From assembly GCA_949959185.1 (NCBI GenBank), contig CATLIX010000027.1, forward strand, positions 1-44,621: DNA of 44,621 nucleotides, read 5' to 3'. The notes below the pieces were generated by a model. That model made no database searches. It was not told the origin of the DNA and saw nothing but the letters and a program-made list of their open reading frames with translations. The translations under genes and the position numbers were made by a program. This document shows positions 6,271 to 43,353 of the stretch, one piece after another. Position 1 is the stretch's first letter; the number at the start of each line of letters is the position of its first letter. The stretch is from an uncultured Eubacterium sp. (lineage in GTDB: Bacteria; Bacillota; Clostridia; Lachnospirales; Lachnospiraceae).

Positions 6271-7605
6271 ATGAAGAAGAAACTTTTATCCATGCTGCTG
6301 GTTGGGGCCATGGCAGTATCAGCCCTGTCAGGCTGCGGGGGAAATGCAGGAAGTGCGGACAAAGGAAGTACGGACGGAGGAAGCGGCACAAAAGAAGCGT
6401 CCTCAGACGCATCAGGAGGAGATAATCCCGTTACCCTGAAAACGGTATCCATGTTCGGCGGTACGGACCCCAACAAAGAGGCTTATGAGGCAATCAATGC
6501 AGACTACATGAAGGAAAACAGCAATGTTACCATTGAAGATAACTCTCAGACCTCAGACGAGGAGTGGAAAGCAGCAGTCAATGCAGATTTTTCCGTTGGA
6601 AATGAGCCGGACGTTATCCAGTTCTTTACCGATGCAACTGCAGACAGCATTATTGCCACAGACAAACTGGTAACAGTAGAAGAAATCTGTGCGGAATATC
6701 CGGATTATGCCAAAGATACTCTGGGAGACGCGCTGGATGCGGCGAAGAATACGGACGGCGTGTCAAGGGCAGTGCCCACTACCGGATACTGGGAAGGACT
6801 GTTCTGCAATAAGGATTTATTTGACAAGTACAATCTGGATTTGCCCACAGACTGGGCTTCCATGGAAAAAGCAATCACCACTTTTAAGGAAAACGGTGTG
6901 ATTCCCATTGCCTGCTCCCTGAACAATGTGCCCCATTACTGGGTGGAATTTTTAATGCTCTATGCAGCAGGAGTGGAAGAATATACCTCTGTTCCGGAAA
7001 CAGCGCCGGAAGGATGGGTAAAAGGTCTTGAGATGTTCAAAACTCTGCGGGATATGGGAGCATTTCCGGAAGATACGGACACGGTAGACGACGCTTATGT
7101 GGGACAGCTGTTCCGTGATAAAAAAGCAGCCATGCAGTTAGAAGGCTCCTGGTATTCCGGAAATATTGAAGATACGGAAAATACCGTAGTAGTTTCCTTC
7201 CCCGGCGTTCCGGACCAGAAAGCGGAAGCAGGCACCATGGTAGGAGGCATTTCCTCCGGATTCTATATTACCAGGAAAGCATGGGATGACCCGGACAAGA
7301 GAGAGGCGGCAGTGAAATTTGTCATGGCCCATACCTGTCAGGCAGGCGTTCAGAAATACTGGGAAGCTACCGGCGCCGTATCCCGTGCGGCAGTGGAAGT
7401 GACTCCGGTGGAAGGTATTTCTCCGCTGGTAGATTCCATTGCAGTGTGCACAGACGCCAAAAACGTGGTGGTAGCCCCGACAGACGCAAGAATCGGCGAT
7501 GCATATAAGACACTGATTTCGGAAATTGTAAAAGTATCCACAGGCGCAATTTCTGCAGAAGACGCCATCAATGAGGCCCTTTCTATCAGACAGCAGTTAC
7601 AGTAA
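6271..7605 (+). CDS. ABC transporter sugar-binding lipoprotein (family 1, CUT1)
   Basis: Extracellular solute-binding lipoprotein (444 aa) that captures sugar and delivers it to the two permeases that follow. The lipobox is LSGC with Cys22 after a short hydrophobic signal, then a Gly/Ser/Asp-rich linker. The mature part has typical family-1 blocks, including the repeated Trp-rich sugar face and GGISSGFYI. A longer in-frame start exists at 6244, but AAGGAGG sits just before ATG 6271 and the lipoprotein signal begins there, so 6271 is chosen. The substrate cannot be read from sequence. Location between the GH94 enzyme and nagB suggests an amino-sugar disaccharide. Confidence 0.88.
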   Translation: MKKKLLSMLLVGAMAVSALSGCGGNAGSADKGSTDGGSGTKEASSDASGGDNPVTLKTVSMFGGTDPNKEAYEAINADYMKENSNVTIEDNSQTSDEEWKAAVNADFSVGNEPDVIQFFTDATADSIIATDKLVTVEEICAEYPDYAKDTLGDALDAAKNTDGVSRAVPTTGYWEGLFCNKDLFDKYNLDLPTDWASMEKAITTFKENGVIPIACSLNNVPHYWVEFLMLYAAGVEEYTSVPETAPEGWVKGLEMFKTLRDMGAFPEDTDTVDDAYVGQLFRDKKAAMQLEGSWYSGNIEDTENTVVVSFPGVPDQKAEAGTMVGGISSGFYITRKAWDDPDKREAAVKFVMAHTCQAGVQKYWEATGAVSRAAVEVTPVEGISPLVDSIAVCTDAKNVVVAPTDARIGDAYKTLISEIVKVSTGAISAEDAINEALSIRQQLQ

Positions 7606-7620
7606 AGAGGTGGGAGAGAG

Positions 7621-8556
7621 ATGTTATATAAGAAAAAATGGCCCCTGCTGATATTTCTGGTGCCCGGCTTACTGTTTATGGTAATTTTTCTTTACATCCC
7701 ATTTCTGGAAAATATTAAGAACAGTTTTTACGATATGCCGGCAGTAGTGAAAATGCCGGGAACGGAATGGAGATTTCTGGGGCTTGACAATTATAAAAGA
7801 CTGTTCACGGACCCGGATGTGAGGACAGCGCTGATAAATTCTCTGAAAATGATGGTGCTTACCGTGATTTTCGAGGTGGGAATCGCTTTTGTGCTGGCGG
7901 TGATGGTGTCTCAGATAAAAAGGCTGCAGCAGTTATTCCGTACTGTATATTTTTTCCCGGTGGTAATCTCCGCCACTGCCATCGGTCTGCTGTTCAAGCT
8001 GTTCTACAATTACAACGGCGGTATGCTGAACCAGATTCTGGAATTTTTCGGAAGAGAGCCGGTGAACTGGCTCTCACCGGAGCTGGCCTTTATCATGGTG
8101 TGTATTCCCACATTGTGGAGTTATATCGGATTTTATTTTGTTATTCTTCTGACGGGACTCAGCGATATCCCCGACGATGTGTACGAAGCGGCTTCCATTG
8201 ACGGGTGCAACCGGTTTATGCAGGTATTTTACATTACCTTTCCCATGATGAAACCGGTATTTTTCACCTCGGTGACACTGGCGGTAACAGGAGCGCTGAA
8301 GGTATTCGATCTTCCCTGGGTAATGGTTCCCAACGGGGCGCCGCAGGGGAGCACCCATTTTCTGGGTACCTACATGTATCAGCAGACCTTCGGGCTGAAC
8401 AATTATGATTATGGTTCCACCCTTGCGGTACTGATTGTGCTTCTGGGAATTCTGGTGTCCAGAGGCGTGGGATTCCTCACGGAAGATAAAGAAGAACGCA
8501 TTGCACGGAAAGAAAAACGTCTCAGAGAGAAAGCGCAGAGAAAGGGGGCGGCATAA
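7621..8556 (+). CDS. ABC sugar permease, MalF/UgpA type
   Basis: Inner-membrane permease of a CUT1 transporter (311 aa), with six or so membrane segments beginning with WPLLIFLVPGLLFMVIFLYI. The cytoplasmic coupling loop (EAA motif) reads EAASIDGCNRFMQVFYITFP, where the ATPase docks. It starts 15 bp after the binding-protein gene behind AGGTGGGAG and ends directly at the next permease, so the three are one transcription unit. No ATP-binding subunit is encoded here. Such transporters in Bacillota usually share an MsmX-type ATPase encoded elsewhere. Confidence 0.9.
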   Translation: MLYKKKWPLLIFLVPGLLFMVIFLYIPFLENIKNSFYDMPAVVKMPGTEWRFLGLDNYKRLFTDPDVRTALINSLKMMVLTVIFEVGIAFVLAVMVSQIKRLQQLFRTVYFFPVVISATAIGLLFKLFYNYNGGMLNQILEFFGREPVNWLSPELAFIMVCIPTLWSYIGFYFVILLTGLSDIPDDVYEAASIDGCNRFMQVFYITFPMMKPVFFTSVTLAVTGALKVFDLPWVMVPNGAPQGSTHFLGTYMYQQTFGLNNYDYGSTLAVLIVLLGILVSRGVGFLTEDKEERIARKEKRLREKAQRKGAA

Positions 8557-9420
8557 ATGGATACAGCAGTACAGAGCACTGTGCCGGCAAAAAAACGAAA
8601 AGTAAAAATCAGCACGGTTGTGATTTATGCCATACTGGTTCTGTGGGCTCTTCTGACCATCTTTCCATTTGTGTGGGTGGCCCTGAATTCCTTTAAGCCT
8701 TCGGCGGAGGTCCTTCGTTCTTCCTTTTCTCTGCCCGCTCCGCCCACGCTGATGAATTATGAAAATGCATTCGGCAAACTGAATGTACTTAAGGCATATG
8801 GACACAGCTTTGTGATTTCAGGTACCGTGACCATAGGAGTTATGGTTCTGGCTTCTCTGATGTCCTTTGCACTGACCAGATATGATTTTAAGGGGAAACA
8901 GTTTGTGCGCAGCCTGATTGTGGCCAGCCTGATGTTCCCGGTGTTCGCCACCATTATCCCGGTCTTTAAAATGATGGTGCAGTGGGGGCTTCTGAGCAAA
9001 AACATTGCGGTAATCCTGCCTCAGATTGCGGGAAACCTGAGTTTTGCCACCATTGTCATGACAGGATTCATGCAGAGCATTCCCCTGGAAATGGAGGAGG
9101 CTGCCTATATGGAAGGAGCCAATGTATTTCAGGTATTTACCGGAATCATTGTTCCCCTCTGCCGGCCTTCCCTGGCTACGGTAGCCATATTCAGCTTCCT
9201 GTGGTCCTACAATGACCTGTTTGTACAGAAAATCATGATACGCGATTCCACCAAATACCCCATTTCCTCTCTGCTGGAGGAAATCAGTTCCCAGTACGGG
9301 ACAGATTTCGGGCTGATGGCCGCTTCCGTGACCATTATTGTGATTCCGGTTATGATTGTATACATATTATTGCAGAAAAATATTATCAAAGGATTGACAG
9401 CAGGAGCAGTGAAAGGATAA
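8557..9420 (+). CDS. ABC sugar permease, MalG/UgpE type
   Basis: Second CUT1 permease subunit (287 aa), forming the channel heterodimer with the preceding MalF-type protein. Its first membrane segment is IYAILVLWALLTIFPFVWVAL and the EAA coupling loop is EAAYMEGANVFQVFTGIIVP. The ATG follows the previous stop without a gap; AAAGGGGG within the end of the upstream gene serves as ribosome site, so translation is probably coupled. Confidence 0.9.
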   Translation: MDTAVQSTVPAKKRKVKISTVVIYAILVLWALLTIFPFVWVALNSFKPSAEVLRSSFSLPAPPTLMNYENAFGKLNVLKAYGHSFVISGTVTIGVMVLASLMSFALTRYDFKGKQFVRSLIVASLMFPVFATIIPVFKMMVQWGLLSKNIAVILPQIAGNLSFATIVMTGFMQSIPLEMEEAAYMEGANVFQVFTGIIVPLCRPSLATVAIFSFLWSYNDLFVQKIMIRDSTKYPISSLLEEISSQYGTDFGLMAASVTIIVIPVMIVYILLQKNIIKGLTAGAVKG

Positions 9421-9509: not shown

Positions 9510-10334
9510 ATGTACAGGGTCATGCTTGTGGATGATGAGCCGATTATTGTGGAAGGGCTGTCAAGGAGTATTCAGTGGGAAAAGTGGAACTGCCGCGTAG
9601 TGGCGACCGCCCACAACGGACTGGAGGGAAAGCAGGTCATTGAGCAGGAAAAACCGGATATTATTTTTATGGATATCTGTATGCCGGAACTGGACGGTCT
9701 TGCCATGATAGCAGCCATTAACTCCCAGTTTCCGGATCTGGAAGTATGCGTACTCACCGGATTTCGGGATTTTGAGTATGCAAAAGAAGCAATTCGTCTG
9801 GGAGTGACCCGGTTTCTGCTGAAGCCTTCCAATATGGAAGAGCTGGAAGAAGCCATAGAGAAGATGTGTGAAAATCTGAAAAAGAAGGGAATTACGGGAG
9901 AGGAGCCGGACGACCTTCCGGAATCAGGCGGAGAAGCGGAAAAGGCTCCGGAGGAATCGGAAGAAAGCCCTTCCGGCAGCTTTATTGTGAAACATGCCCT
10001 TGCTTATATCGGGGAACATTATGAGCAGAAACTGACACTGGGAGAAGTAGCGGAAAAGACATATGTGAGCCAGTGGCATCTGAGCAAACTTCTGAACCGT
10101 CATACGGGACAGAGCTTTTCCGATATTCTGAACCGTGTGCGGATAGAAAAAGCCAAAGAACTGCTGAAAGACCCCTCTCTTCGTATTGGAACCATATCTG
10201 AGCAGGTGGGATTCCTGGATATGGCCCATTTTTCCAGAGTGTTTAAAAAGCGGGAAGGGGTTACCGCCAATGAATACCGGAATAAAATTCCGGGGAGACA
10301 GAAAAACAGCAGAAAAAGAAATGGAGAGAAATAG
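9510..10334 (+). CDS. Response regulator, YesN-type (receiver + AraC HTH)
   Basis: Transcription factor of the two-component system (274 aa). The N-terminal receiver has Asp8/Asp9 in LVDDE, phospho-acceptor Asp55 in FMDICMPELDG and the conserved Lys in RFLLKPS. After an acidic linker (about 130-165) the C-terminal part is an AraC-type double helix-turn-helix, with SQWHLSKLLNRHTGQSF and FLDMAHFSRVFKK. An upstream in-frame start at 9429 would add 27 unrelated residues, so ATG 9510, preceded by AAAGGG, is preferred. Kinase and regulator are separated by the transporter genes they probably control. NagB follows 3 bp after the stop. Confidence 0.9.
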   Translation: MYRVMLVDDEPIIVEGLSRSIQWEKWNCRVVATAHNGLEGKQVIEQEKPDIIFMDICMPELDGLAMIAAINSQFPDLEVCVLTGFRDFEYAKEAIRLGVTRFLLKPSNMEELEEAIEKMCENLKKKGITGEEPDDLPESGGEAEKAPEESEESPSGSFIVKHALAYIGEHYEQKLTLGEVAEKTYVSQWHLSKLLNRHTGQSFSDILNRVRIEKAKELLKDPSLRIGTISEQVGFLDMAHFSRVFKKREGVTANEYRNKIPGRQKNSRKRNGEK

Positions 10335-18839: not shown

Positions 18840-19100
18840 TTATTCCTCAATCATATGTATTTCCAGAAAATCAAATGAAATTTCTTCCAGAAAATTATCC
18901 TGATAAAAGCGGGCTTTGCCATGGCGTTTGAATTCGGACACGGTGGCGTCCAGCCAGATTGGCCGGCCCAGATCAAATTCATAACAGACCTGTTCCAGTG
19001 CATGGAAGATTTTATGAGTGCGGGTGTCGCTGCTGTCGTCCGTAATCACGGTATCCCGGAGCAGACGGTTATCTTTGCATAATTTAAACCAGATACGCAT
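18840..19100 (-). CDS. Small conserved protein of unknown function
   Basis: An 86-aa soluble, acidic protein without signal or membrane segment (MRIWFKLCKDNRLLRDTVI at the start, then DDSSDTRTHKIFHALEQ and PIWLDATVSEFKRHGKARF). I recall near-identical proteins of this size annotated as hypothetical in many Clostridia. AGGAAA precedes the ATG, and a good terminator follows. It lies downstream of the repeat-peptide gene on the same strand, separated by a terminator, so co-function is not implied. Confidence 0.8.
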   Translation of the reverse strand: MRIWFKLCKDNRLLRDTVITDDSSDTRTHKIFHALEQVCYEFDLGRPIWLDATVSEFKRHGKARFYQDNFLEEISFDFLEIHMIEE

Positions 19101-19203: not shown

Positions 19204-19208
19204 GGAAA

Positions 19209-19243
19209 AGACCAGAAGTTCCGCCGAGGCAGAACCCTGGTCT
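19209..19243 (-). terminator. Terminator of the repeat-peptide gene
   Basis: On the minus strand AGACCAG and CTGGTCT (19243-19237, 19215-19209) pair, with an inner GTTC/GAAC stem, followed by TTTTCC. It lies 44 bp after the peptide stop codon. Confidence 0.65.
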
Positions 19244-19286: not shown

Positions 19287-19484
19287 TTAGTTATCCCCGT
19301 TGCAGTTCATATCTGTAATACTGCAGGTAGTATCATCTTTGTCGCTGTTGCAGTTCATGTCTGTGATACTGCAGGTGCTGTCGTCATTATCGCCGTTACA
19401 GTTCATATCTGTAATACTGCAGGTAGTATCTTCATCTGAAGTTACTCCGTTCATGTTCGAAATATTTAAGTTTTTCTTCTCCAT
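19287..19484 (-). CDS. 65-aa peptide with three Cys-X6-Cys 16-residue repeats
   Basis: Unrecognised small protein. After a 19-residue hydrophilic head (MEKKNLNISNMNGVTSDED) come three units of 16, 16 and 14 residues with the pattern TCSITDMNCN followed by an Asp/Asn-rich linker. Cysteines are at 22/29, 38/45 and 54/61, always six residues apart. There is no secretion signal or membrane helix. Coding is strongly supported: AGGAGGG (19490-19496) is 5 nt before the ATG, a TTGCAA-17-TATAAT promoter lies upstream, a terminator lies downstream, and repeats differ mostly at synonymous or conservative sites. Possible roles are a RiPP precursor with iterated core, a metal or Ca-binding peptide, or a redox peptide; the neighbouring ahpC/thioredoxin genes are divergent. 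No maturase is in the window. Confidence 0.8.
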   Translation of the reverse strand: MEKKNLNISNMNGVTSDEDTTCSITDMNCNGDNDDSTCSITDMNCNSDKDDTTCSITDMNCNGDN

Positions 19485-19538
19485 AGTTTCCCTCCTGAAC
19501 CAATATAAAAAATGTAATTGCGTCTTATCTGTGTCTGT

Positions 19539-19567
19539 ATTATAACGTTAATTGGCAGGGATTGCAA
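19539..19567 (-). promoter_or_regulatory. Consensus promoter of the repeat-peptide gene
   Basis: On the minus strand TTGCAA (19567-19562), 17-bp spacer, TATAAT (19544-19539). The predicted transcript starts about 47 nt before the ATG. The remainder of the 308-bp gap (19485-19792) holds this and the divergent ahpC promoter. Confidence 0.75.
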
Positions 19568-19792: not shown

Positions 19793-20359
19793 ATGGAAAA
19801 TATGATTAATAAACAGGTGGAAGCATTTCAGGTATCAGCATTCTGCAAAGGAGAGTTTCTGGACGTAACGCAGGAGGATTTGAAAGGACACTGGTCCGTG
19901 CTGTTTTTTTATCCGGCAGATTTTACCTTTGTATGCCCTACGGAGCTGGGAGATCTGGCAGATTATTATGAGGAATTCAAAGAAGAAGGGTGTGAGATTT
20001 ATTCCGTATCGGAAGATACTCATTTTGTACACAAGGCATGGGCGGATGCGTCAGACACTATTAAAAAGATTCAGTATGTAATGCTGGGAGATCCGGCAGG
20101 TGTTCTTGCAAAACAGTTTGGTGTTCTGGTGGAAGAACTGGGACAGGCTCTGCGCGGAACTTTTATTCTGAATCCAAAAGGAGAAGTAAAAGCATATGAG
20201 ATTCATGACATGGGAATCGGAAGAAATGCGGAGGAACTGCTCCGGAAGCTGCGGGCGGCAAAATTCGTGGAAGAACATGGAGATCAGGTGTGTCCGGCAA
20301 AATGGCAGCCGGGAGAGGAGACCTTAAGTCCGAGCCTGGACCTGGTTGGGATGCTGTAG
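19793..20359 (+). CDS. ahpC: Alkyl hydroperoxide reductase C (2-Cys peroxiredoxin)
   Basis: Cytoplasmic peroxidase reducing H2O2 and organic peroxides (188 aa, usual length). The peroxidatic Cys48 sits in DFTFVCPTELGDL and the resolving Cys167 in QVCPAKWQPG, the AhpC/Prx1 signature. The C-terminal tail is complete. ATG is preceded by AAAGGAG. The next gene starts 10 bp after the stop and encodes a two-thioredoxin-fold protein that is its likely electron donor. Confidence 0.95.
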   Translation: MENMINKQVEAFQVSAFCKGEFLDVTQEDLKGHWSVLFFYPADFTFVCPTELGDLADYYEEFKEEGCEIYSVSEDTHFVHKAWADASDTIKKIQYVMLGDPAGVLAKQFGVLVEELGQALRGTFILNPKGEVKAYEIHDMGIGRNAEELLRKLRAAKFVEEHGDQVCPAKWQPGEETLSPSLDLVGML

Positions 20360-20369
20360 GAGAAGCGAA

Positions 20370-21041
20370 ATGATTAATATCGAAAAAATATCTCTCAGAA
20401 GTGAACTTATTACGGAGGAACTGGAAAGTCAGCTGAATACGGTACTTGGGAAGCTCACAGGGGAAGTATGCATGGTGTGTGTAATCAATCCGGAAGAAAA
20501 GGCTTCCATGGAAATGGCGGAACTGGTGCGCCATATGGCCGGGCTGTCCGATAAACTTTCCTGCCGTTTTTATGATCAGGCAGAGGCCGAAAAAGAACTG
20601 CCGGAGCTGGACGCTTCACTGTTGCCCGTGACAGCACTCTATAAAAATGACAGGTATACAGGGGTGGCATATCATGGAGTTACCGGCGGCAAGGAGATGA
20701 ATTCTCTGGTATTCGGTATTTACAATACGGCAGGCCCTGGTCAGGAAATCAGCGGAAGAATACAGAAGAAGCTGCAGAAACTGGAAGACAAGGTGGATAT
20801 CAGAGTATTTGTATCTCTGTCCTGCCATCATTGTGCACAGCAGGTAATAACCTGTCAGAAAATGGCTTCCGAGTCAGAAATGATTGAAGCCAGAATGATA
20901 GACGCCAGATTATATCCGGAGCTTGCGGAACAATACCATATTGAACGGATTCCCATGACTATTGTGAACGAGAAGGAAGTGCTGATGGGGACAAAAACCA
21001 TCGAAGAAATGTATCAGGTGATTAAAAAGTGTAAAAAGTAA
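20370..21041 (+). CDS. AhpF N-terminal-domain-like thioredoxin-fold protein
   Basis: A 223-aa protein resembling the tandem thioredoxin-fold N-terminal domain of AhpF or archaeal protein disulfide oxidoreductase. Only the second fold has a redox site, SLSCHHCAQQV with Cys152 and Cys155; the first fold lacks CxxC, as in AhpF. A cis-Pro loop ERIPMTIVN follows. The FAD/NAD(P)H reductase part of AhpF is missing, so a separate thioredoxin reductase must reduce it. AGGAGA precedes ATG 20370; a TTG start 24 bp upstream is unlikely. Location 10 bp after ahpC supports a role as AhpC reductant. Confidence 0.82.
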   Translation: MINIEKISLRSELITEELESQLNTVLGKLTGEVCMVCVINPEEKASMEMAELVRHMAGLSDKLSCRFYDQAEAEKELPELDASLLPVTALYKNDRYTGVAYHGVTGGKEMNSLVFGIYNTAGPGQEISGRIQKKLQKLEDKVDIRVFVSLSCHHCAQQVITCQKMASESEMIEARMIDARLYPELAEQYHIERIPMTIVNEKEVLMGTKTIEEMYQVIKKCKK

Positions 21042-21321: not shown

Positions 21322-21888
21322 ATGGAACAGAAATTTTATGATGCGATGGCGGACTGTCCCGTTGTTGCGGCGGTAAAAAACTTTGAGGGAATTGAGAAAT
21401 GTCTGAAATCTGATGTAAAAATTGTATTTATTCTGTTCGGAGATATGTGCAATATCGGCGAAATTGTGGAACAGCTGAAAAGGGCAGACAAAATAGCTCT
21501 GGTGCATCTGGATTTGATTGAAGGGCTCAGCGCCCATGAGATTGCGGTGGATTATATCAGAAAAAATACAAAAGCAGATGGAATTATTTCAACCAGGATG
21601 AATATGATTAATCGTGCAAAAGAGTTGTCCATGTATACGGTTTATCGAATTTTTGTGCTGGATTCCAGAGCTTATCAGAGTATAGAAAAGCAGAAAAAGC
21701 AAATCCGGGCAGATTTTATCGAGATTCTGCCGGGAGTCATGCCGAAGATTATACGGAAGATCAATAAACTTAGTTCTCAGGCTGTCATTGCCGGCGGACT
21801 GATCAGTGACAGGGAAGATGTGATTGACGCGCTGAATGCCGGGGCAATTTCAGTTTCAACCACCAACCAGGATATATGGTTTATGTAA
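21322..21888 (+). CDS. glpP: Glycerol-3-phosphate-responsive antiterminator GlpP
   Basis: RNA-binding regulator (188 aa) that, with glycerol-3-phosphate, prevents termination in leaders of glycerol genes. It has the TIM-barrel GlpP pattern: NFEGIEKCLKS, VFILFGDMCNIGEIVEQLK, LVHLDLIEGLS, ADGIISTRMNMI, and near the end AVIAGGLISDREDVIDALNAGA and VSTTNQDIW, which suggest the phosphate site. GGGAGG precedes the ATG. It is followed 15 bp later by a TetR gene and then glpK, glpF and a glpD-type operon, matching its role. A terminator hairpin sits in its own leader. Confidence 0.92.
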   Translation: MEQKFYDAMADCPVVAAVKNFEGIEKCLKSDVKIVFILFGDMCNIGEIVEQLKRADKIALVHLDLIEGLSAHEIAVDYIRKNTKADGIISTRMNMINRAKELSMYTVYRIFVLDSRAYQSIEKQKKQIRADFIEILPGVMPKIIRKINKLSSQAVIAGGLISDREDVIDALNAGAISVSTTNQDIWFM

Positions 21889-21903
21889 GGAGGAGAAAGA
21901 GAG

Positions 21904-22458
21904 ATGGGTAATACAAAAAGAAAGATTGCAGACGGGTTACAGGAGCTGCTTCATGAAAAGCCGCTGAGGAAGATTACCGTTCAGGATATCATGGACTGCA
22001 AGAATATGAAACGCCAGAGTTTCTATTATCATTTCCAGGATATTTACGGAGTGATTGAGTGGCTTTATAATGAAGACTTTGTAAAACAGGTTGCATATGA
22101 CGAGAATGAGGCATTTGAGGACTGGATTTGCAAGGTTGTAAGAATCATCAGGGAAAATCGTTTCTTCTATAAGAAAGTGCTGGAGAATATCAGCAGAGAA
22201 CGACTGATGGAGCGGCTGTTTCCGGTGGTGGACGAACAGCTCAGAGGCCGGTTCTGGTCAGAGAAAAACGGGAACTATCTGGTGGAAAGTTTTATTGTGA
22301 AATCTGTCTGTCATTTTGTACTGGACTGTGTGGCCATGAAGAAAGGGCCGGGAGAGGAAGAAGTGCTTGCTGCGGTGGAAAATATCAGAGCCATGCTGCA
22401 TCATCCAACAAATAATATTTTGGTACTTCCTACAACAAAAAGCAGTATGACAGCATAG
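21904..22458 (+). CDS. TetR family transcriptional regulator
   Basis: DNA-binding regulator (184 aa). The N-terminal helix-turn-helix is ITVQDIMDCKNMKRQSFYYHFQDIYGVIEWLY, a canonical TetR fold-start, and the C-terminal half resembles the DhaS-like subgroup (TetR_C_8). In Bacillota this subgroup includes regulators of dihydroxyacetone or glycerol use, which fits a location between glpP and glpK; the ligand is not known. AAGGAGGAG precedes the ATG. It is co-transcribed with glpP (15-bp gap). Confidence 0.85.
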   Translation: MGNTKRKIADGLQELLHEKPLRKITVQDIMDCKNMKRQSFYYHFQDIYGVIEWLYNEDFVKQVAYDENEAFEDWICKVVRIIRENRFFYKKVLENISRERLMERLFPVVDEQLRGRFWSEKNGNYLVESFIVKSVCHFVLDCVAMKKGPGEEEVLAAVENIRAMLHHPTNNILVLPTTKSSMTA

Positions 22459-22524
22459 AGTTTCGGCAGAAACACCGTGTATTGGGACGGAAGAACAATA
22501 AATTTCAATAAATTGTACAAATAA

Positions 22525-24099
<1,575 letters not shown>

Positions 24100-24138
24100 A
24101 AGACAAAAGTAGATTGAAGGCAGAAAGGGGAACACGAA

Positions 24139-24843
24139 ATGTTACCATATATAGCAGAATTTGTAGGAACAATGATGTTGATCATGTTAGGTGATGGCGT
24201 AGTTGCTAACGTAACTCTGAACAAATCCGGAATGAAGGGCGCAGGCTCTATCCAGATTACCATTGCCTGGGGTCTTGCAGTTATGATACCGGCATTCATT
24301 TTTGGTGCTGCATCCGGTGCAAGTTTTAACCCCGCTTTAACCTTGGCATTAGCAGTAGACGGCAGCTTTGCATGGGATCTGGTGCCTGGTTATATCGTAG
24401 CACAGTTCGCAGGTGCATTTGTAGGCGCGATTATTGTATGGATTGCTTTCAAAGGCCAGTTCGATGCAACAGATGATCCGGGAACCAAACTTGGTGTATT
24501 CTCCTGTGGACCATCTATTCCGAACCTTCCAATGAACATCCTTGCAGAAGCAGTTGCAACTTTCGTACTGGTATTTGCAATCAAAGGCCTTCCGGCAGAA
24601 GCTCCTGCTGGTGTAGGTAACCTGTTAGTATTCGGAATCATCGTTTCCTGCGGTATGTCCTTTGGTGGATTAACAGGATACGCTATGAACCCGGCCCGTG
24701 ACCTTGGACCTCGTCTGGCACATACAATCCTTCCGATCAGCGGAAAAGGAAGCTCTAACTGGGGATATGGAATCGTTACATTAGTTGGACCGATCATCGG
24801 CGCTCTGCTGGCAGTTGGTCTGTATGGAATCATTCCATGGTAA
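24139..24843 (+). CDS. glpF: Glycerol uptake facilitator (aquaglyceroporin)
   Basis: Membrane channel of the MIP family (234 aa) letting glycerol diffuse in. Six membrane segments are arranged around two pore loops, SFNPALTLAL and GYAMNPARDLGPRLA, both with intact NPA; Arg after the second NPA and Asp of ARDLG are the glyceroporin signature. It starts 39 bp after glpK, behind AAAGGGG, and shares its transcript. Confidence 0.94.
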   Translation: MLPYIAEFVGTMMLIMLGDGVVANVTLNKSGMKGAGSIQITIAWGLAVMIPAFIFGAASGASFNPALTLALAVDGSFAWDLVPGYIVAQFAGAFVGAIIVWIAFKGQFDATDDPGTKLGVFSCGPSIPNLPMNILAEAVATFVLVFAIKGLPAEAPAGVGNLLVFGIIVSCGMSFGGLTGYAMNPARDLGPRLAHTILPISGKGSSNWGYGIVTLVGPIIGALLAVGLYGIIPW

Positions 24844-24857
24844 AATAATGACTCGAA

Positions 24858-24866
24858 TGTTATAAT
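24858..24866 (+). promoter_or_regulatory. Extended -10 promoter before the glpD-type operon
   Basis: TGT-TATAAT (24858-24866) is a full extended -10. A -35 match is poor (around 24838-24843). It lies 17 bp after the glpF stop and about 55 bp before the terminator hairpin. Confidence 0.5.
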
Positions 24867-24919
24867 TATCGTGTAAAGCACTGATATGTGAAATATGGCA
24901 TTGCAGAGATAACAGAGAG

Positions 24920-24964
24920 GCAATGATTACATTCCCCGGAATGGGGAGTGTGATTGTTGCTTTT
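24920..24964 (+). terminator. Leader/intergenic terminator between glpF and the dehydrogenase operon
   Basis: An 18-bp stem with only G-U mismatches: left arm 24920-24937 (GCAATGATTACATTCCCC), right arm 24943-24960, loop GGAAT, followed by TTTTCCTG. The right end shares TGTTGCTT with the glpP leader hairpin. This would be the predicted GlpP antitermination site for the dehydrogenase operon, or a simple glpKF terminator. Confidence 0.75.
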
Positions 24965-25077
24965 CCTGTATCAGAAACTGGTTTGTATTTTAAATAAGTA
25001 AATTAACTGCCCTGAACCTCCGGCTTATGGCAGTAAAAAATAAATAAGAAAGAGTGAGAAAAGGATAGGTGAACAAT

Positions 25078-26514
25078 ATGTATGATGTAGTAATTATTGG
25101 AGCAGGCGTATCAGGAAGTGCTTCCGCAAGAGAACTTTCCAGATACAAACTGAATGTCTGTGTAGTGGAAAAGGAAGAAGACGTATGCTGTGGAACATCC
25201 AAGGCAAACAGTGCAATTGTACATGCCGGATTTGACGCAGAAGCAGGTTCCCTTATGGCGAAGCTGAATGTGGAAGGCAACCAGATGATGGAAGCTCTTT
25301 CCAAAGAACTGGATTTCCATTATAAGAACAATGGTTCTCTGGTTGTATGTATCAACGAAGAAGAAAAACCCAATCTGCAGGCGCTGTATGACAGAGGTGT
25401 GGAGAACGGTGTCAAAGATCTGCGCATTATTGACAGAGAAGAACTTGTAAAACTGGAGCCAAATATTGCAGATGAGGCAGTGGCAGCGCTGTATGCACCT
25501 ACCGGCGGAATTGTCTGCCCCTTTGGAATGAACATTGCTTTTGCTGAAAATGCGGCAACCAACGGCGTGGAATTCAAATTTGATACGGAAGTAACGGATC
25601 TGGAGAAAAAGGGAGACAACTGGATTGTTAAGACAAATCAGGGTGAGATTGAGACCAGATACGTTGTAAACGCAGCAGGCGTTTATGCTGATAAATTCCA
25701 CAACATGGTAAGCGATAAGAAATTACATATCACACCGAGACGCGGAGATTACTGTCTGTTAGACCGCTCTACCGAAGGATTTGTAACACATACTATTTTC
25801 CAGCTTCCAGGTAAATACGGAAAAGGCGTTCTGGTATCTCCTACCGTTCACGGCAATACTTTGGTAGGACCTACTGCAATTGACATTGAGAACAGAGAAG
25901 GAACCAATACCACACAGGAAGGTATTGACGAACTGATTAACAAGGCAGGAACTACTGTAAAAGGTCTTCCAATCCGTCAGGTAATCACCTCATTTGCAGG
26001 ACTCCGTGCACATGAAGACGGGCATGAGTTCTACATTGGCGAGCTGGAAGAAGCAAAAGGCTTCATTGACTGTGCAGGTATCGAGTCTCCCGGACTGACC
26101 AGTGCTCCGGCAATTGGAAAAATGGTAGCAAATATTATCAAAGATCTGACAAATGCAGAAGAGAATCCTGACTTTAACGGAACCAGAAAAGGAATCCTGG
26201 ATCCCAAGACTCTGACCAATGAAGAACGGGCGGCTCTGATTAAGGAAAATCCTGCATATGGAAATATTATCTGCAGATGTGAGATGATTACAGAAGGCGA
26301 AATTATCGACGCAATCAAACGTCCTCTGGGCGCAAAATCCCTGGACGGTGTAAAACGTCGTACCAGAGCCGGAATGGGACGCTGCCAGGCAGGTTTCTGT
26401 TCTCCGAGAACCATCGAGATTCTTTCCAGAGAACGCGGAGTAGACCCATCCGAAATTACAAAAGCAGGTGGAGAATCCAGGATTATTGTAGGAATTAATA
26501 AAGACAGAATATAG
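25078..26514 (+). CDS. FAD-dependent glycerol-3-phosphate dehydrogenase, GlpA-like
   Basis: Flavoprotein (478 aa) that likely oxidises glycerol-3-phosphate to dihydroxyacetone phosphate. The Rossmann FAD site is VVIIGAGVSGSASARELSRY. The DAO-type body includes SAIVHAGFDAEAGSLMAKLN. The C-terminal BFD-like [2Fe-2S] domain (about 395-450) has CRCE and CQAGFC, as in GlpA of the anaerobic GlpABC enzyme. SD AGGTG sits 7 nt before ATG 25078; a GTG nine bases upstream is an alternative. Forms an operon with the next two genes, downstream of glpK-glpF. Regulation by GlpP is suggested by the leader hairpin. Confidence 0.88.
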   Translation: MYDVVIIGAGVSGSASARELSRYKLNVCVVEKEEDVCCGTSKANSAIVHAGFDAEAGSLMAKLNVEGNQMMEALSKELDFHYKNNGSLVVCINEEEKPNLQALYDRGVENGVKDLRIIDREELVKLEPNIADEAVAALYAPTGGIVCPFGMNIAFAENAATNGVEFKFDTEVTDLEKKGDNWIVKTNQGEIETRYVVNAAGVYADKFHNMVSDKKLHITPRRGDYCLLDRSTEGFVTHTIFQLPGKYGKGVLVSPTVHGNTLVGPTAIDIENREGTNTTQEGIDELINKAGTTVKGLPIRQVITSFAGLRAHEDGHEFYIGELEEAKGFIDCAGIESPGLTSAPAIGKMVANIIKDLTNAEENPDFNGTRKGILDPKTLTNEERAALIKENPAYGNIICRCEMITEGEIIDAIKRPLGAKSLDGVKRRTRAGMGRCQAGFCSPRTIEILSRERGVDPSEITKAGGESRIIVGINKDRI

Positions 26515-26540
26515 TTGGTTACGAATCAGGAGGGAAAAAA

Positions 26541-27812
26541 ATGTTAAATTATGATATTGTTATTGTAGGAGGCGGCCCTGCAGGACTTGCAGCAGCCGTA
26601 TCAGCAAAAAGAAATGGAGTAGAATCTATTTTAGTATTAGAAAGAGATAAAGAGCTGGGTGGTATTCTGAATCAGTGTATCCACAATGGATTCGGACTTC
26701 ATACATTTAAAGAAGAGCTGACAGGCCCGGAATATGCAGGAAGATTTATTGACCAGTTAAAAGACGAGAAGATTGAATATAAATTGAACACCATGGTTAT
26801 GGATATTGCACCGAACAAGGTTGTAACTGCCATGAACCGTGAAGATGGAATGTTTGAAATTCAGGCAAAAGCAATTGTACTTGCCATGGGCTGCAGAGAG
26901 CGTTCCCGAGGCGCGTTGAATATTCCCGGATATCGTCCGGCAGGTATTTATTCTGCAGGTACTGCACAGCGTCTTGTGAATATGGAAGGCTATATGCCGG
27001 GACGTGAAGTAGTAATTCTTGGTTCCGGTGATATCGGACTGATTATGGCAAGAAGAATGACACTGGAAGGTGCAAAGGTTAAAGTGGTAGCTGAGTTAAT
27101 GCCATATTCCGGCGGACTGAAGAGAAATATCGTACAGTGTCTGGATGACTACGGAATTCCGCTGAAATTGAGCCATACTGTTGTAGATATCGAAGGCAAG
27201 GAGAGAGTGGAAGCGATTACCATCGCAGAAGTGGGTTCGGACAGAAGACCGATTCCGGGAACAGAAGAACGTTATACCTGCGATACTCTGCTGTTATCCT
27301 GCGGACTGATTCCGGAAAACGAGCTGTCCAGAAGCCTGAATGTGGAAATGAGCCCGGTTACATCCGGACCGCTGGTAAACGAATGTCTGGAAACCAATGT
27401 GGAAGGTGTATTTGCATGTGGTAACGTGCTTCACGTACATGATCTGGTAGACTTTGTTTCCGAGGAAGCATCTGCTGCCGGAAAACATGCTGCTGAGTAT
27501 GTACTGAACGGTGCAAAACATAAAGACACCAATGCAAAGGATATTCCGATTGTTGCGGTAGAAGGTGCACGCTACACCGTACCGAAGACCATCAATCCGG
27601 ACAGAATGGATGAGAAACATACGGTACGTTTTCGTGTGGGCGATGTATATAAGAACTGCTATGTATCCGTATATCTGAATGATGAGCGTATTATTCACAA
27701 AAAGCGTCCGGTTGTAGCACCTGGAGAGATGGAAGAAGTTGTACTGAAAAAAGAAGAATTAGCAGCATTTTCAAATCTGTCTCAGATTACCGTAAAGATT
27801 GAGGAGGCGTAA
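26541..27812 (+). CDS. NAD(P)/FAD-dependent oxidoreductase, GlpB-like partner
   Basis: Pyridine-nucleotide-disulfide oxidoreductase family flavoprotein (423 aa). FAD-binding GGGPAGLAAAVSAKRNG is at the start, a second Rossmann motif GSGDIGLIMARRMTLEGA (about 160) suits NAD(P), and the ATG motif-like VFACGNVLHVHDLVDFV is near residue 295. It lies 26 bp after the GlpA-like gene behind AGGAGGG. It probably passes electrons between the dehydrogenase flavin and a carrier. Sequence is unlike E. coli GlpB, so the name is by position only. Confidence 0.82.
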   Translation: MLNYDIVIVGGGPAGLAAAVSAKRNGVESILVLERDKELGGILNQCIHNGFGLHTFKEELTGPEYAGRFIDQLKDEKIEYKLNTMVMDIAPNKVVTAMNREDGMFEIQAKAIVLAMGCRERSRGALNIPGYRPAGIYSAGTAQRLVNMEGYMPGREVVILGSGDIGLIMARRMTLEGAKVKVVAELMPYSGGLKRNIVQCLDDYGIPLKLSHTVVDIEGKERVEAITIAEVGSDRRPIPGTEERYTCDTLLLSCGLIPENELSRSLNVEMSPVTSGPLVNECLETNVEGVFACGNVLHVHDLVDFVSEEASAAGKHAAEYVLNGAKHKDTNAKDIPIVAVEGARYTVPKTINPDRMDEKHTVRFRVGDVYKNCYVSVYLNDERIIHKKRPVVAPGEMEEVVLKKEELAAFSNLSQITVKIEEA

Positions 27813-27816
27813 AACT

Positions 27817-28176
27817 ATGGAAACAAGAGAATTAATTTGTATCGGATGCCCCATGGGCTGCCCGTTAAAAGTGGAAATGAACAATGGTGAAGTGGTAAGC
27901 GTTACCGGCAATACCTGCAAGCGCGGTGATGATTATGCGAGAAAAGAAGTAACCAACCCGACCAGAATCGTTACAAGTTCTGTTATCGTAGAAGGCGGAA
28001 GCCTTGCAGCAGTATCTGTAAAGACAAAAGAAGATATTCCGAAAGGAAAAATCTTTGATATTATGAAAGACCTGAAAGGCGTAAAAGTTCAGGCACCGGT
28101 ACATATCGGGGATGTAATTGTAAGCGACGTGGCAGGTACAGGCGTAGACATTATCGCAACCAAAAACGTATTATAA
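27817..28176 (+). CDS. DUF1667 cysteine-motif protein, third dehydrogenase subunit
   Basis: A 119-aa protein with four N-terminal cysteines, Cys8, Cys11, Cys15 (ICIGCPMGCPL) and Cys34 (GNTCKRGDDYA), the DUF1667 pattern. CxxCxxxC-Xn-C spacing resembles the [4Fe-4S] site of molybdopterin oxidoreductases, but there is no direct proof of a cluster here. GAGGAGG before ATG 27817 sits in the end of the previous gene, so translation is coupled. Conserved linkage to GlpA/GlpB-like flavoproteins suggests it replaces GlpC as electron carrier. Confidence 0.85.
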   Translation: METRELICIGCPMGCPLKVEMNNGEVVSVTGNTCKRGDDYARKEVTNPTRIVTSSVIVEGGSLAAVSVKTKEDIPKGKIFDIMKDLKGVKVQAPVHIGDVIVSDVAGTGVDIIATKNVL

Positions 28177-39102: not shown

Positions 39103-40284
39103 ATGGCAAAGAAAGTTGTTTTGGCAGGCGCATGTCGTACCGCAATCGGAACTATGGGTGGAGCTTTAAGCACAACTCCTGCACCGGTATTGGGGTCTAT
39201 CGTTATCAAAGAAGCATTGAACAGAGCTGGTGTTCCGGCTGACAAAGTTGACCATGTATACATGGGCTGCGTAATCCAGGCTGGTCTGGGACAGAACGTG
39301 GCACGTCAGGCGTCCATCAATGCCGGTCTGCCTATTGAGACACCGGCAGTTACCGTGAACGTAGTCTGCGGCTCCGGTCTGAACTGCGTAAATATGGCTG
39401 CTCAGATGATTCAGGCAGGCGATGCTGATATCGTTGTGGCAGGCGGTATGGAAAACATGTCTATGGCTCCTTATGCTGCTATGCAGGGACGTTACGGATA
39501 CAGAATGAACAATGCGACTCTGGTAGATACCATGGTAAACGACGCATTGTGGGATGCATTCAATCAGTACCATATGGGAATTACTGCTGAAAACGTAGCA
39601 GAGAAATGGGGACTGACCAGAGAACAGTTAGACGAGTTTGCAGCAACTTCACAGCAGAAATGTGAAAAAGCAATGAACGACGGTAAATTCAAAGATGAAA
39701 TCGTTCCGGTAGAAGTAAAACAGAAGAAGAAAACAGTGATTGTAGATACAGACGAAGGACCACGTCCCGGCACAACCAAAGAAAGCATTTCCAAACTGCG
39801 TCCCGCATTCAAACCGGACGGAATTGTTACCGCAGCAAATGCTTCCGGAATCAACGACGGTGCGGCAGCAGTGATTGTTATGAGTGAAGAAAAAGCAAAA
39901 GAACTGGGCGTTACACCGATGGCTACTTTCGTAGCAGGCGCACTTGGCGGCGTAGACCCGTCCATCATGGGTGTGGGACCGGTTGCTTCCACAAAGAAAG
40001 TATTCGAGAAGACAGGTCTGACCATTGACGATATGGATCTGGTAGAGGCTAACGAAGCATTTGCAGCTCAGTCTCTGGCAGTAGCACATGACCTGAACTT
40101 TGATATGAGCAAGGTTAATGTAAATGGCGGCGCTATCGCACTGGGACATCCGGTAGGAGCCAGCGGATGCCGTATCCTTGTTACTCTGCTTCATGAAATG
40201 CAGAAGAGAGACGCTAAGAAAGGTCTTGCAACTCTGTGTATCGGCGGTGGAATGGGATGCTCTACCATCGTGGAAAGAGATTAA
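39103..40284 (+). CDS. thl: Acetyl-CoA acetyltransferase (thiolase)
   Basis: Condenses two acetyl-CoA to acetoacetyl-CoA, first step of butyrate formation (393 aa). Nucleophile Cys89 is in [17 protein letters not shown], the His349 loop is [10 protein letters not shown], and Cys379 is in [18 protein letters not shown] precedes the ATG. First gene of the operon thl-hbd-bcd-etfB-etfA. A 15-bp perfect hairpin separates it from hbd, where many butyrate producers carry crt nearby. Confidence 0.96.
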
Positions 40285-40301
40285 TTTAGCTGGTTATTAA
40301 T

Positions 40302-40335
40302 TGAGATACCGAAGCGGTCACGCTTCGGTATCTCA
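40302..40335 (+). other. Perfect 15-bp hairpin between thl and hbd
   Basis: TGAGATACCGAAGCG (40302-40316) pairs perfectly with CGCTTCGGTATCTCA (40321-40335) around GTCA. No T-run follows, so it is probably an mRNA-stability or processing element in the operon rather than a terminator. Confidence 0.75.
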
Positions 40336-40359
40336 CAGAATAATTTAAGGAGGATTATC

Positions 40360-41199
40360 ATGAAAGTTGGCGTTATTGGAGCAGGAACCATGGGTTCCGG
40401 AATTGCACAGGCATTTGCACAGACAGAAGGATATGAAGTATGCCTTTGCGATATTAATGACGAATTTGCAGCAAATGGCAAGAAGAAAATTGCAAAAGGA
40501 TTCGAGAAGAGAGTTGCAAAAGGCAAGATGGACCAGGCAGCAGCAGACGCAATCCTTGCAAAGATTTCCACAGGTACAAAGGAAATCTGCGGCGACTGTG
40601 ATTTAATCGTAGAGGCAGCGCTGGAAGTAATGGATGTTAAGAAACAGACATTCAAAGAACTGCAGGACATTGTGAAGAAAGACTGCATGTTCGCAACCAA
40701 CACATCTTCCCTTTCCATCACAGAAATTGGCGCAGGACTTGACAGACCGGTAATCGGTATGCATTTCTTCAATCCGGCTCCGGTTATGAAACTGGTTGAG
40801 GTTATCAAAGGAGAGAACACACCGGATGAAATGAAAGATAAAATCGTTAAGATTTCTGAAGAAATCGGCAAGACTCCGGTAGAAGTAAACGAAGCAGCAG
40901 GATTTGTTGTAAACAGAATCTTAATCCCGATGATCAACGAAGCAGTTGGAATCTATGCAGACGGCGTAGCTTCCGTAGAAGGTATCGACACCGCTATGAA
41001 ACTGGGTGCAAACCATCCGATGGGACCTCTGGCTCTGGGAGATCTGGTTGGACTGGATATCTGCCTTGCAATTATGAATGTATTATATGATGAGACAGGA
41101 GATCCGAAATACCGTCCGCATCCATTGTTAAAGAAAATGGTACGTGCAGGTAAGCTGGGACAGAAGACCGGAATCGGTTTCTATGACTACAGCAAATAA
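40360..41199 (+). CDS. hbd: 3-hydroxybutyryl-CoA dehydrogenase
   Basis: Reduces acetoacetyl-CoA to 3-hydroxybutyryl-CoA with NAD(P)H (279 aa). NAD loop is [17 protein letters not shown]; the catalytic His region is [17 protein letters not shown]; the C-terminal domain ([36 protein letters not shown]) is intact. AAGGAGG precedes the ATG. It sits between thl and bcd; the crotonase needed for the next step is not in the window. Confidence 0.96.
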
Positions 41200-41261
41200 T
41201 ACATAATAACGAAAGCATGGCCGGCAGCGGGCTTTTGCCTGCGCCGTATAGAATGTGAGGA

Positions 41262-41294
41262 ACTGCCGTATTGGGTTTATCTTAATGCGGCAGT
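41262..41294 (+). other. Hairpin between hbd and bcd
   Basis: ACTGCCG (41262-41268) pairs with CGGCAGT (41288-41294) around a 19-nt loop in the 136-bp hbd-bcd gap. There is no T-run. A GC-rich partial stem also lies at about 41221-41246. These may shape mRNA stability. Confidence 0.45.
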
Positions 41295-41335
41295 CCCATT
41301 CCATAAAATAAAAGAAAGTTTGGAGGAAAAGTATC

Positions 41336-42490
41336 ATGGATTTTTCTTTAGATAAGAAACATGAAATGGCGAGAACTCTGTTCAGAGAGTTTGCTGAAAA
41401 TGAAGTAAAGCCTCTTGCTCAGGAAGTTGATGAGACAGAAAAATTCCCAAGAGGAACCGTAGAGAAAATGCAGAAAATCGGATTCATGGGTATTCCGATT
41501 CCGAAAGAGTACGGCGGACAGGGCTGTGATCCTCTTACCTACATTATGTGCGTAGAGGAACTGTCCAAAGTTTGCGGTACTACCGGCGTTATCGTATCTG
41601 CACACACCTCTCTCTGCTGCGACCCGATTATGACATACGGTAATGAAGAGCAGAAACAGAAATATCTTGCACCTCTTGCAAGAGGAGAGAAACTGGGCGC
41701 ATTTGCTCTGACAGAGCCGGGCGCAGGTACGGACGCACAGGGCTGCCAGACAAAAGCAGTGTTAGACGGAGACGAATGGGTACTGAACGGCTCCAAATGC
41801 TTTATTACCAACGGTAAAGAAGCTGATATTTATATCGTAATCGCAATCACAAGCGTTGTGGAAGATAAGAGAGGAAGAAAGAAAAAGAATTTCTCCACCT
41901 TTATCGTAGAAAAAGGAACACCGGGCTTCTCCTTCGGAACAAAAGAGAAGAAAATGGGTATCCGCGGCTCCGCTACATATGAACTGATTTTTGAAGACTG
42001 CAGAATTCCGAAAGAGAATCTGTTAGGACCGGAAGGAAAGGGATTCCCAATCGCAATGCATACACTGGACGGCGGACGTATCGGTATCGCAGCTCAGGCT
42101 CTCGGTATTGCAGAAGGCGCACTGGATGCAACCATCGCTTATACAAAAGAGAGAAAACAGTTTGGACGTTCCATCGCAATGCAGCAGAATACCCAGTTCC
42201 AGTTAGCAGACATGGCAGCTAAGATTGAAGCGGCTCAGATGCTGGTTTACAAGGCAGCTATGGCAAAAGCTACTCAGAAAGTTTACTCTGTGGAAGCAGC
42301 AAAGGCAAAATTATTTGCAGCAGAGGTTGCCATGGACGTAACTACCAGATGCGTACAGCTTTTCGGCGGATACGGATACATCAGAGAGTACGATGTAGAG
42401 CGTATGATGCGTGACGCCAAGATTACAGAAATCTATGAAGGAACTTCCGAAGTTCAGCGTATGGTTATTTCCGGCGCACTGTTGAAATAG
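41336..42490 (+). CDS. bcd: Butyryl-CoA dehydrogenase
   Basis: Acyl-CoA dehydrogenase (384 aa) reducing crotonyl-CoA to butyryl-CoA. Signature blocks are FALTEPGAGTDAQG (flavin/substrate), GSKCFITNGKEAD, and YEGTSEVQRMVISGALLK with catalytic base Glu368. With EtfAB encoded downstream it can form the electron-bifurcating complex that reduces ferredoxin. TTGGAGGAAA precedes the ATG. All acyl-CoA dehydrogenase core residues appear intact. Confidence 0.96.
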   Translation: MDFSLDKKHEMARTLFREFAENEVKPLAQEVDETEKFPRGTVEKMQKIGFMGIPIPKEYGGQGCDPLTYIMCVEELSKVCGTTGVIVSAHTSLCCDPIMTYGNEEQKQKYLAPLARGEKLGAFALTEPGAGTDAQGCQTKAVLDGDEWVLNGSKCFITNGKEADIYIVIAITSVVEDKRGRKKKNFSTFIVEKGTPGFSFGTKEKKMGIRGSATYELIFEDCRIPKENLLGPEGKGFPIAMHTLDGGRIGIAAQALGIAEGALDATIAYTKERKQFGRSIAMQQNTQFQLADMAAKIEAAQMLVYKAAMAKATQKVYSVEAAKAKLFAAEVAMDVTTRCVQLFGGYGYIREYDVERMMRDAKITEIYEGTSEVQRMVISGALLK

Positions 42491-42533
42491 CCGCGATAAG
42501 CAAAGAAAAATAAAACATAAGGAGTGAATTACC

Positions 42534-43319: not shown

Positions 43320-43353
43320 TATATCCGTAAAAATAAGGAAAGTGGTGAAAATA

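What the first reader, a model, noticed from the sequence alone, without database searches (positions are those of the whole stretch)
19287..19567. Cys-X6-Cys triple-repeat peptide with full gene signals
Three 16-residue units of the pattern TCSITDMNCN plus an Asp/Asn-rich linker follow a 19-residue hydrophilic head. The gene has a TTGCAA-17-TATAAT promoter, an AGGAGGG ribosome site and a terminator, so it is very likely expressed. The regular six-residue Cys spacing suggests iterated modification (RiPP-like core), metal or Ca binding, or redox chemistry. I do not recognise the family and no maturase is in the window.
Basis: partly seen in the sequence, partly recalled or inferred. Interest (0 to 1): 0.78.

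Follow-up and report, generated by a model that had tools for sequence, protein, structure and literature searches.

The report
Cysteine-repeat peptide paired with peroxide scavenger
A tiny, previously unnamed gut-bacterial protein built from repeated cysteine-pair motifs travels with a hydrogen-peroxide-destroying enzyme whose partner lacks its usual reductase half, suggesting a new small redox helper.

Summary
A 65-aa minus-strand gene (window 19484-19287) has three 16-residue Cys-X6-Cys units, a consensus promoter, a ribosome site and a terminator. It is a conserved protein: 21 distinct peptides (window included) from 20 genomes, dN/dS well below 1, no Pfam or NCBIfam match above cut-off. 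In 63 repeat units both cysteines are present (53) or both absent (10), never one. The head is a Cys-less unit.

The RiPP reading is not supported: no maturase is linked, 10 of 53 Cys units lack the CX3D Asp, and no SPASM enzyme was found that tracks the peptide (partial test).

The peptide is instead tied to an AhpC peroxiredoxin and an AhpF-N-terminal-like disulfide oxidoreductase (PDO). Within the genus, peptide and AhpC occur in the same 11 of 29 genomes. In the family sample, all 4 peptide-positive genomes with a PDO have it as a short open frame without the NADH/flavin domain; only 3 of 56 peptide-negative ones have a short frame. Best explanation: a cytosolic multi-dithiol accessory (electron relay or adaptor) of a reductase-less AhpC/PDO peroxidase. 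A version without Cys pairs sits in arsenic operons, one in a genome without a detected AhpC, which limits this reading.

The parts
19539..19567 (-). promoter of the peptide gene: TTGCAA, 17 nt, TATAAT
   Evidence: TATAAT is present in all 9 same-genus intergenic regions aligned, TTGCAA exactly in 5 of those 9; neither was seen in the tenth region (L053, another genus)
19490..19496 (-). ribosome-binding site AGGAGGG, 5 nt before the ATG
   Evidence: read
19287..19484 (-). 65-aa Cys-X6-Cys repeat peptide gene
19428..19484 (-). 19-residue head containing the Cys-less unit LNISNMNG
19380..19427 (-). repeat unit 1 (TTCSITDMNCNGDNDD)
19332..19379 (-). repeat unit 2 (STCSITDMNCNSDKDD)
19287..19331 (-). 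repeat unit 3 and stop
19206..19243 (-). intrinsic terminator of the peptide gene
19793..20359 (+). AhpC-type 2-Cys peroxiredoxin, divergent from the peptide gene
   Evidence: Pfam AhpC-TSA 2e-34; PDB AhpC matches
20370..21041 (+). standalone PDO: AhpF N-terminal-like protein with CHHC, no flavin domain
   Evidence: Thioredoxin_3; profile matches 5h29, 1zyn, 1hyu; open frame 237 aa; start codon read
21322..28176 (+). adjacent glycerol cluster (G3P antiterminator, TetR, glycerol kinase, glpF, DAO+Fer2_BFD, Pyr_redox_2, DUF1667), whose 3' end carries the peptide gene in L005, L007, L017 and L036

Best explanation
The gene makes a cytosolic, probably disordered, acidic peptide that carries several dithiol pairs (Cys-X6-Cys), each inside a conserved recognition motif [IL]-[TN]-[DN]-M-N. 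It serves a peroxide-reducing system made of AhpC and a standalone PDO (the AhpF N-terminal part without its NADH/flavin half). Proposed mechanism: the motif docks on a thioredoxin-fold partner (PDO or AhpC), and the paired cysteines cycle between dithiol and intramolecular disulfide, relaying or buffering electrons that the missing tethered flavoprotein domain would otherwise deliver, from a TrxB-like or other flavoprotein to PDO to AhpC to H2O2. Shown: conserved gene, all-or-none Cys pairing, genomic linkage and co-occurrence with AhpC, correlation with the short, reductase-less PDO. Inferred: cytosolic location, physical contact, disulfide cycling, the identity of the electron donor.
For: Purifying selection. 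53 CC, 10 no-Cys and 0 single-Cys among 63 non-head units of 21 peptides, 16.8 single expected if independent. PDO within the fetched stretch in 16 of 20 peptide genomes and AhpC in 15 of 20 (window), in several arrangements: divergent from ahpC, divergent from the PDO gene (L011), after DUF1667 at the end of the neighbouring glycerol cluster (L005, L007, L017, L036); L007 has a copy at each end of the cluster. Genus: peptide in 11 of 29 genomes, AhpC in the same 11 of 29, p 3e-8 without phylogenetic correction. Family: of 85 genomes with an AhpC match, the four best (the window's own included) are the four peptide-positive genomes that have AhpC. AhpC tree: 15 of 17 peptide-linked rows in one clade, 97/88. 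PDO: 4 of 4 peptide-positive genomes have open frames of 226-253 aa, while 53 of 56 peptide-negative ones have 486 aa or more (p 7e-5 uncorrected). Own genome has a separate 302-aa TrxR-like ORF with CATC. In AhpF this domain relays electrons from the flavoprotein part to AhpC (passages of PMC8945050 and PMC12288474).
Against: The arsenic-operon relatives (G271, G587) have no Cys pair (one Cys each). G271 has no AhpC match at E 1e-5 and G587 only a 29%-identical one, so neither Cys nor this AhpC is essential to the whole family. AhpC next to the L011 and L036 peptides falls outside the main clade. G015 has a standalone PDO without a detected peptide. L010 has no AhpC or PDO in its 10 kb. Counts are phylogenetically non-independent; only 5 of 397 family genomes have the peptide. 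No structure was predicted (pLDDT 41). No experiment bears on it.
Confidence: 0.4

Rival explanations
1. Cys-optional adaptor: the [IL]-x-[ND]-M-N-[G/C] repeat is a multivalent docking motif that holds or regulates thioredoxin-fold or other partners; the Cys pair merely closes the loop by a disulfide in most copies.
For: The core motif stays when both Cys are replaced (heads, L011, L014, L028/29, arsenic-operon types). The arsenic-type copy lies between acr3-like and arsD-like genes; ArsD being a thioredoxin-fold protein is recalled, not tested.
Against: Cys pair kept in 53 of 63 units; in a reducing cytosol a purely structural disulfide in a short peptide would be unstable (inference).
Confidence: 0.22
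2. Metal- or metalloid-binding peptide (metallothionein-like), sequestering iron, zinc or arsenite so as to limit thiol damage.
For: Dithiol pairs with Asp-rich linkers (net charge -6 to -15 in the 19 peptides with Cys pairs); peroxide and arsenic contexts.
Against: The arsenic-operon versions are the ones lacking the Cys pairs; the residues between the Cys are more conserved than metal ligation alone should need (inference).
Confidence: 0.13
3. Sacrificial thiol sink or redox sensor: the pairs are oxidised by AhpC/PDO as a signal or buffer, without passing electrons to PDO.
For: Same linkage and pairing evidence as the best explanation.
Against: Does not explain the correlation with absence of the flavin domain.
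Confidence: 0.12
4. RiPP precursor: thioether (ranthipeptide-like CX3D) or other crosslinked cores.
For: CSITD/CGLND fits CX3D in 43 of 53 Cys units; PapB links Cys to Asp in CX3D (passages of PMC9413430); own genome has 3 SPASM matches elsewhere; one SPASM cluster among the loci compared was seen only in peptide-positive genomes, 4 of the 7 examined.
Against: 10 of 53 Cys units have Asn there. No maturase linked: the only CxxxCxxC hits in ORFs of at least 150 aa are HemW-like, in 5 of 20 stretches. The only SPASM type shared by peptide-positive G399 and G414 among the loci compared also occurs in peptide-negative G402. Units exist with no Cys.
Confidence: 0.06
5. Not a functional protein (chance ORF or decaying repeat).
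For: No family match in Pfam or NCBIfam above cut-off; rare outside the genus.
Against: dN/dS, conserved promoter in the genus, clean orthologues.
Confidence: 0.02

Closest known systems
AhpC/AhpF alkyl hydroperoxide reductase (typical 2-Cys Prx1 peroxiredoxin with NADH flavoprotein)
   Same: Window AhpC is a clear AhpC, and the PDO matches the AhpF N-terminal domain
   Different: The flavin/NADH domain is absent next to it and the repeat peptide is added
Fused flavoprotein-PDO reductases of peptide-negative Lachnospiraceae (domain order like F. nucleatum AhpF, passage of PMC12288474)
   Same: Follow ahpC; PDO homology lies in the same long open frame
   Different: One long protein (open frames mostly about 510-600 aa) including a TrxR-like domain; no peptide detected
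Ranthipeptides (PapA/PapB, freyrasin)
   Same: Repeated CX3D-like motifs after a leader-like head
   Different: No linked radical SAM maturase; Asn at the acceptor in 10 of 53 units; units exist without Cys (freyrasin is recalled, not looked up)
Thioredoxin/glutaredoxin-type redoxins
   Same: Would work like a dithiol electron carrier (hypothesis)
   Different: No family match to thioredoxins, no CxxC, spacing C-x6-C, no confident fold

Membership tests
AhpC (Prx1 peroxiredoxin), window 19793-20359 | AhpC-TSA family with peroxidatic FVCP and resolving VCP Cys | tested here: met
   Pfam 2e-34; FTFVCPTE and QVCPAKW in the sequence
AhpF, window 20370-21041 | N-terminal double-thioredoxin domain with CxxC | tested here: met
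   profile hits 1zyn and 1hyu over profile positions 13-217; CHHC invariant in 8 rows
AhpF, window 20370-21041 | TrxR-like FAD/NADH domain in the same protein | tested here: not met
   open frame 237 aa; the best TrxR-like match of the genome lies on another contig
Ranthipeptide precursor | CX3D/E acceptor in the core | tested here: inconclusive
   Asp in 43 and Asn in 10 of 53 Cys units
Ranthipeptide precursor | linked radical SAM/SPASM maturase | tested here: not met
   only HemW-like CxxxCxxC ORFs, in 5 of 20 stretches; a maturase elsewhere in the genome is not excluded
Ranthipeptide or other RiPP | modified core in the cell | not testable with these tools
   needs mass spectrometry
Metallothionein-like peptide | binds metal through Cys | not testable with these tools
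   no Pfam match of that kind; needs a binding assay
SFI toxin family (Pfam Toxin_28) | score over the curated cut-off | tested here: not met
   20 bits against 25 for the window peptide

The most novel reading that the evidence does not exclude
A new class of electron carrier: a short disordered repeat peptide with C-x6-C dithiol pairs stands in for the tethered flavoprotein domain of AhpF, carrying electrons from a general flavoprotein (TrxB-like, or the FAD enzymes of the adjacent glycerol cluster) to a standalone PDO and AhpC. A branch without Cys pairs was recruited to arsenic operons, where thiols would be poisoned.
Probability: 0.22. Interest if true: 0.82.

Novelty: new variant of a known kind. 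Interest (0 to 1): 0.62.

Why it matters
Anaerobic gut bacteria can remove peroxide with AhpC, yet these lineages appear to lack, beside AhpC, the flavin reductase domain that most AhpC-bearing relatives have (53 of 56 long open frames). A small partner peptide that tracks those AhpCs would make the question 'how is this AhpC reduced' directly testable with a few small proteins, and could add a non-thioredoxin dithiol peptide to the known kinds of electron carrier. The pair-wise gain and loss of Cys in a fixed motif is also a clean natural experiment on what the Cys do.

Tried and rejected
RiPP core: looked for linked maturases and for SPASM proteins restricted to peptide-positive genomes; none tracked the peptide throughout, but the comparison covers 13 genomes, 33 fetched loci and SPASM-type enzymes only. 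One search did show one SPASM cluster (L115, L128, L137, L143) seen only in peptide-positive genomes (G000, G399, G421, G400); G414, also positive, has no SPASM match of that length apart from the L140 type, though its third locus was not fetched, nor were all loci of G398 and G405.

Mobile element: no match in plasmids, phages or viral contigs for the window peptide or family alignment or for the arsenic-type peptide.

Structure: AlphaFold2 gave pLDDT 41, so no fold search was made. PDB: no sequence match to the peptide profile.

Pfam Toxin_28 hit (6 of 16 members, best 3e-4; window member 20 bits against the cut-off of 25): rejected as Cys-spacing noise (judgement).

Structured RNA: no Rfam match in the window at gathering scores.

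Literature: searches for 'TDMNC', Lachnospiraceae + peroxiredoxin + small protein + cysteine, and arsenic resistance operon + Acr3 + ArsD + small peptide found 0 papers each. Searches gave listings with nothing on this peptide in the titles or abstract starts shown. Absence from print is claimed for these searches only. Of PMC9413430, PMC8945050 and PMC12288474 I saw passages, not the whole text.

AhpC loop 134-139 (IHDMGI in most of the peptide clade) resembles the peptide motif I-T-D-M-N; kept only as a note, because L011 and L036 lack it.

Full report
Observation. The gene lies on the minus strand, ATG at 19484 and stop ending at 19287. A TTGCAA-17-TATAAT promoter and a terminator-like stem are found by scan (fold z -4.3); AGGAGGG is read directly. 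The 65 aa are a head (MEKKNLNISNMNGVTSDED) and three 16-residue units around CSITDMNC, the last one shortened. The head contains LNISNMNG, a Cys-less form of the same motif.

Is it a real gene. A scan of species-level genomes returned 10 homologous loci, and whole-genome searches gave more: 5 of 397 family genomes, 11 of 29 genus genomes, 4 of 392 order genomes, and 1 of 398 phylum genomes, the window's own. The own genome is in each of these counts and the samples overlap. After merging duplicates there are 21 distinct full peptides, window included, from 20 genomes (one further genome, G421, is identical to the window; G399 also holds a truncated head copy beside a transposase-like gene). 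dN is 0.018-0.32; every defined dS is 0.52 or more, and dS is undefined in 19 of 45 pairs (10 sequences). No Pfam or NCBIfam family above its cut-off and no PDB sequence match.

Anatomy. Of 63 non-head units, 53 have Cys at positions 1 and 8, 10 have neither, none has one; all 21 heads have neither (the first script mis-binned two heads, corrected; two of the Cys-less units carry a Cys at position 7). If independent, about 17 single-Cys units would be expected, though the units are related by descent. The Cys-less units come from L011, L014, L028 and L029 (unit 2 each) and the two arsenic-type peptides (all three units each). The residues between stay: in the 53 Cys units I/L (F in 3), T/N (Q in 1), D/N, M (51), N (53). 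So the Cys are used as a pair in a motif that can exist without them. AlphaFold2 finds no confident structure.

Neighbourhood. Next to the gene, divergent, is ahpC (AhpC-TSA), followed directly by a 223-aa PDO with CHHC whose profile matches AhpF N-terminal domains (5h29, 1zyn, 1hyu), then a glycerol cluster ending in DUF1667. PDO is in the fetched stretch of 16 of 20 peptide genomes and AhpC in 15 of 20 (window plus 15 and 14 of the 19 other stretches). The exceptions: L010 (neither in its 10 kb; it has TetR-like, glpF-like, peptide), G281 (peptide at a contig edge; AhpC-PDO on another contig), and the two arsenic-type loci; L005 has PDO but no AhpC on its short contig. The peptide gene occurs divergent from ahpC, divergent from the PDO gene (L011), or as the gene after DUF1667 (L005, L007, L017, L036; 2 nt between in L036). 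L007 has one copy at each end of the cluster.

Co-occurrence. In the genus, AhpC (E <= 1e-20) is in 11 of 29 genomes, the same 11 that have the peptide. This may reflect a cassette gained or lost as a unit, so it shows linkage rather than function. In the family, AhpC is in 85 of 397 genomes; the four best hits, the window's own included, are the four peptide-positive genomes with AhpC; the other 81 have no peptide. On a tree of 42 AhpCs (one of 26 negative loci, L073, gave no sequence), 15 of 17 peptide-linked rows form one clade with support 97/88; L011 and L036 lie elsewhere.

The missing reductase. In 12 of 16 peptide-negative AhpC loci inspected, AhpC is followed by a large flavoprotein ORF that starts like a TrxR; the rest were a split frame (L078), a contig end (L071), no such ORF (L075) and a standalone PDO (L077 = G015). 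A PDO search of 329 family genomes found 60 with a match: the 4 peptide-positive ones have open frames of 226-253 aa; of 56 others, 53 have 486 aa or more and 3 have less than 300 (G015 standalone; G205, whose ORF begins like the flavoprotein and then runs into PDO; G218, not inspected). That the long frames are flavoprotein fusions is shown only for those inspected. Fisher p 7e-5, uncorrected for descent. The peptide-bearing systems thus lack the tethered NADH/flavin half. The window's genome has a separate 302-aa TrxR-like ORF with CATC on C29, and a distant homologue in the glycerol cluster. In AhpF this PDO-like domain hands electrons from the flavin domain to AhpC (passages of PMC8945050 and PMC12288474).

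Counter-evidence. G271 and G587 (G587 from another family of the order) carry a version with no Cys pair (one Cys each) between acr3-like and arsD-like genes of an arsenic operon (gene names from reading the sequence, not from a family search). G271 has no AhpC match at E 1e-5; G587 has one of 29% identity, a different peroxiredoxin type by similarity. The family's common denominator is therefore the N-M-N motif, not the Cys or this AhpC. That keeps an adaptor role open; a swap of Cys for Tyr/Gly where arsenite would bind dithiols is an attractive but untested idea.

RiPP test. CX3D is present in 43 of 53 Cys units and CX3N in 10; PapB is described as using Asp or Glu (passages of PMC9413430). 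No maturase is linked. SPASM matches occur in all 12 genus genomes tested (6 with and 6 without the peptide). Among the 33 fetched loci put into, G399 and G414, both positive, share only the type represented by L139/L140, which peptide-negative G402 also has; another cluster was seen only in four positive genomes. Maturation in trans is not excluded.

Conclusion. A new small-protein family by the libraries searched; an association with AhpC/PDO is well supported; a redox function of the Cys pairs is likely; the electron-relay mechanism is a hypothesis at about 0.2-0.4.

Noticed in passing
L019 (G271) 9539-9736 and L035 (G587) 1461-1658: Members of the peptide family without Cys pairs inside arsenic operons (acr3-like, peptide, arsD-, arsA-, arsC-like) in two different families of the order.
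   Followed up: partly
window 19793-20359, AhpC residues 134-139: 15 of 17 peptide-linked AhpCs share a loop close to IHDMGI that most other AhpCs lack; it resembles the peptide motif I-T-D-M-N. L011 and L036 AhpCs do not have it.
   Followed up: partly
L039 (G399) 6718-9288: A transposase-like gene lies between a truncated head copy of the peptide gene and a full copy.
   Followed up: no
L095 (G205) 1276-2136: An ORF that begins like the TrxR-like flavoprotein but runs straight into the PDO domain, as if the middle were deleted (or misassembled).
   Followed up: no
window 18840-19100, minus strand: 86-aa ORF downstream of the peptide gene on the same strand with no Pfam or NCBIfam match.
   Followed up: no
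window 39103-44400: Thiolase, 3-hydroxybutyryl-CoA dehydrogenase, acyl-CoA dehydrogenase and EtfBA-like genes: a butyrate-type cluster (by sequence reading, not searched).
   Followed up: no
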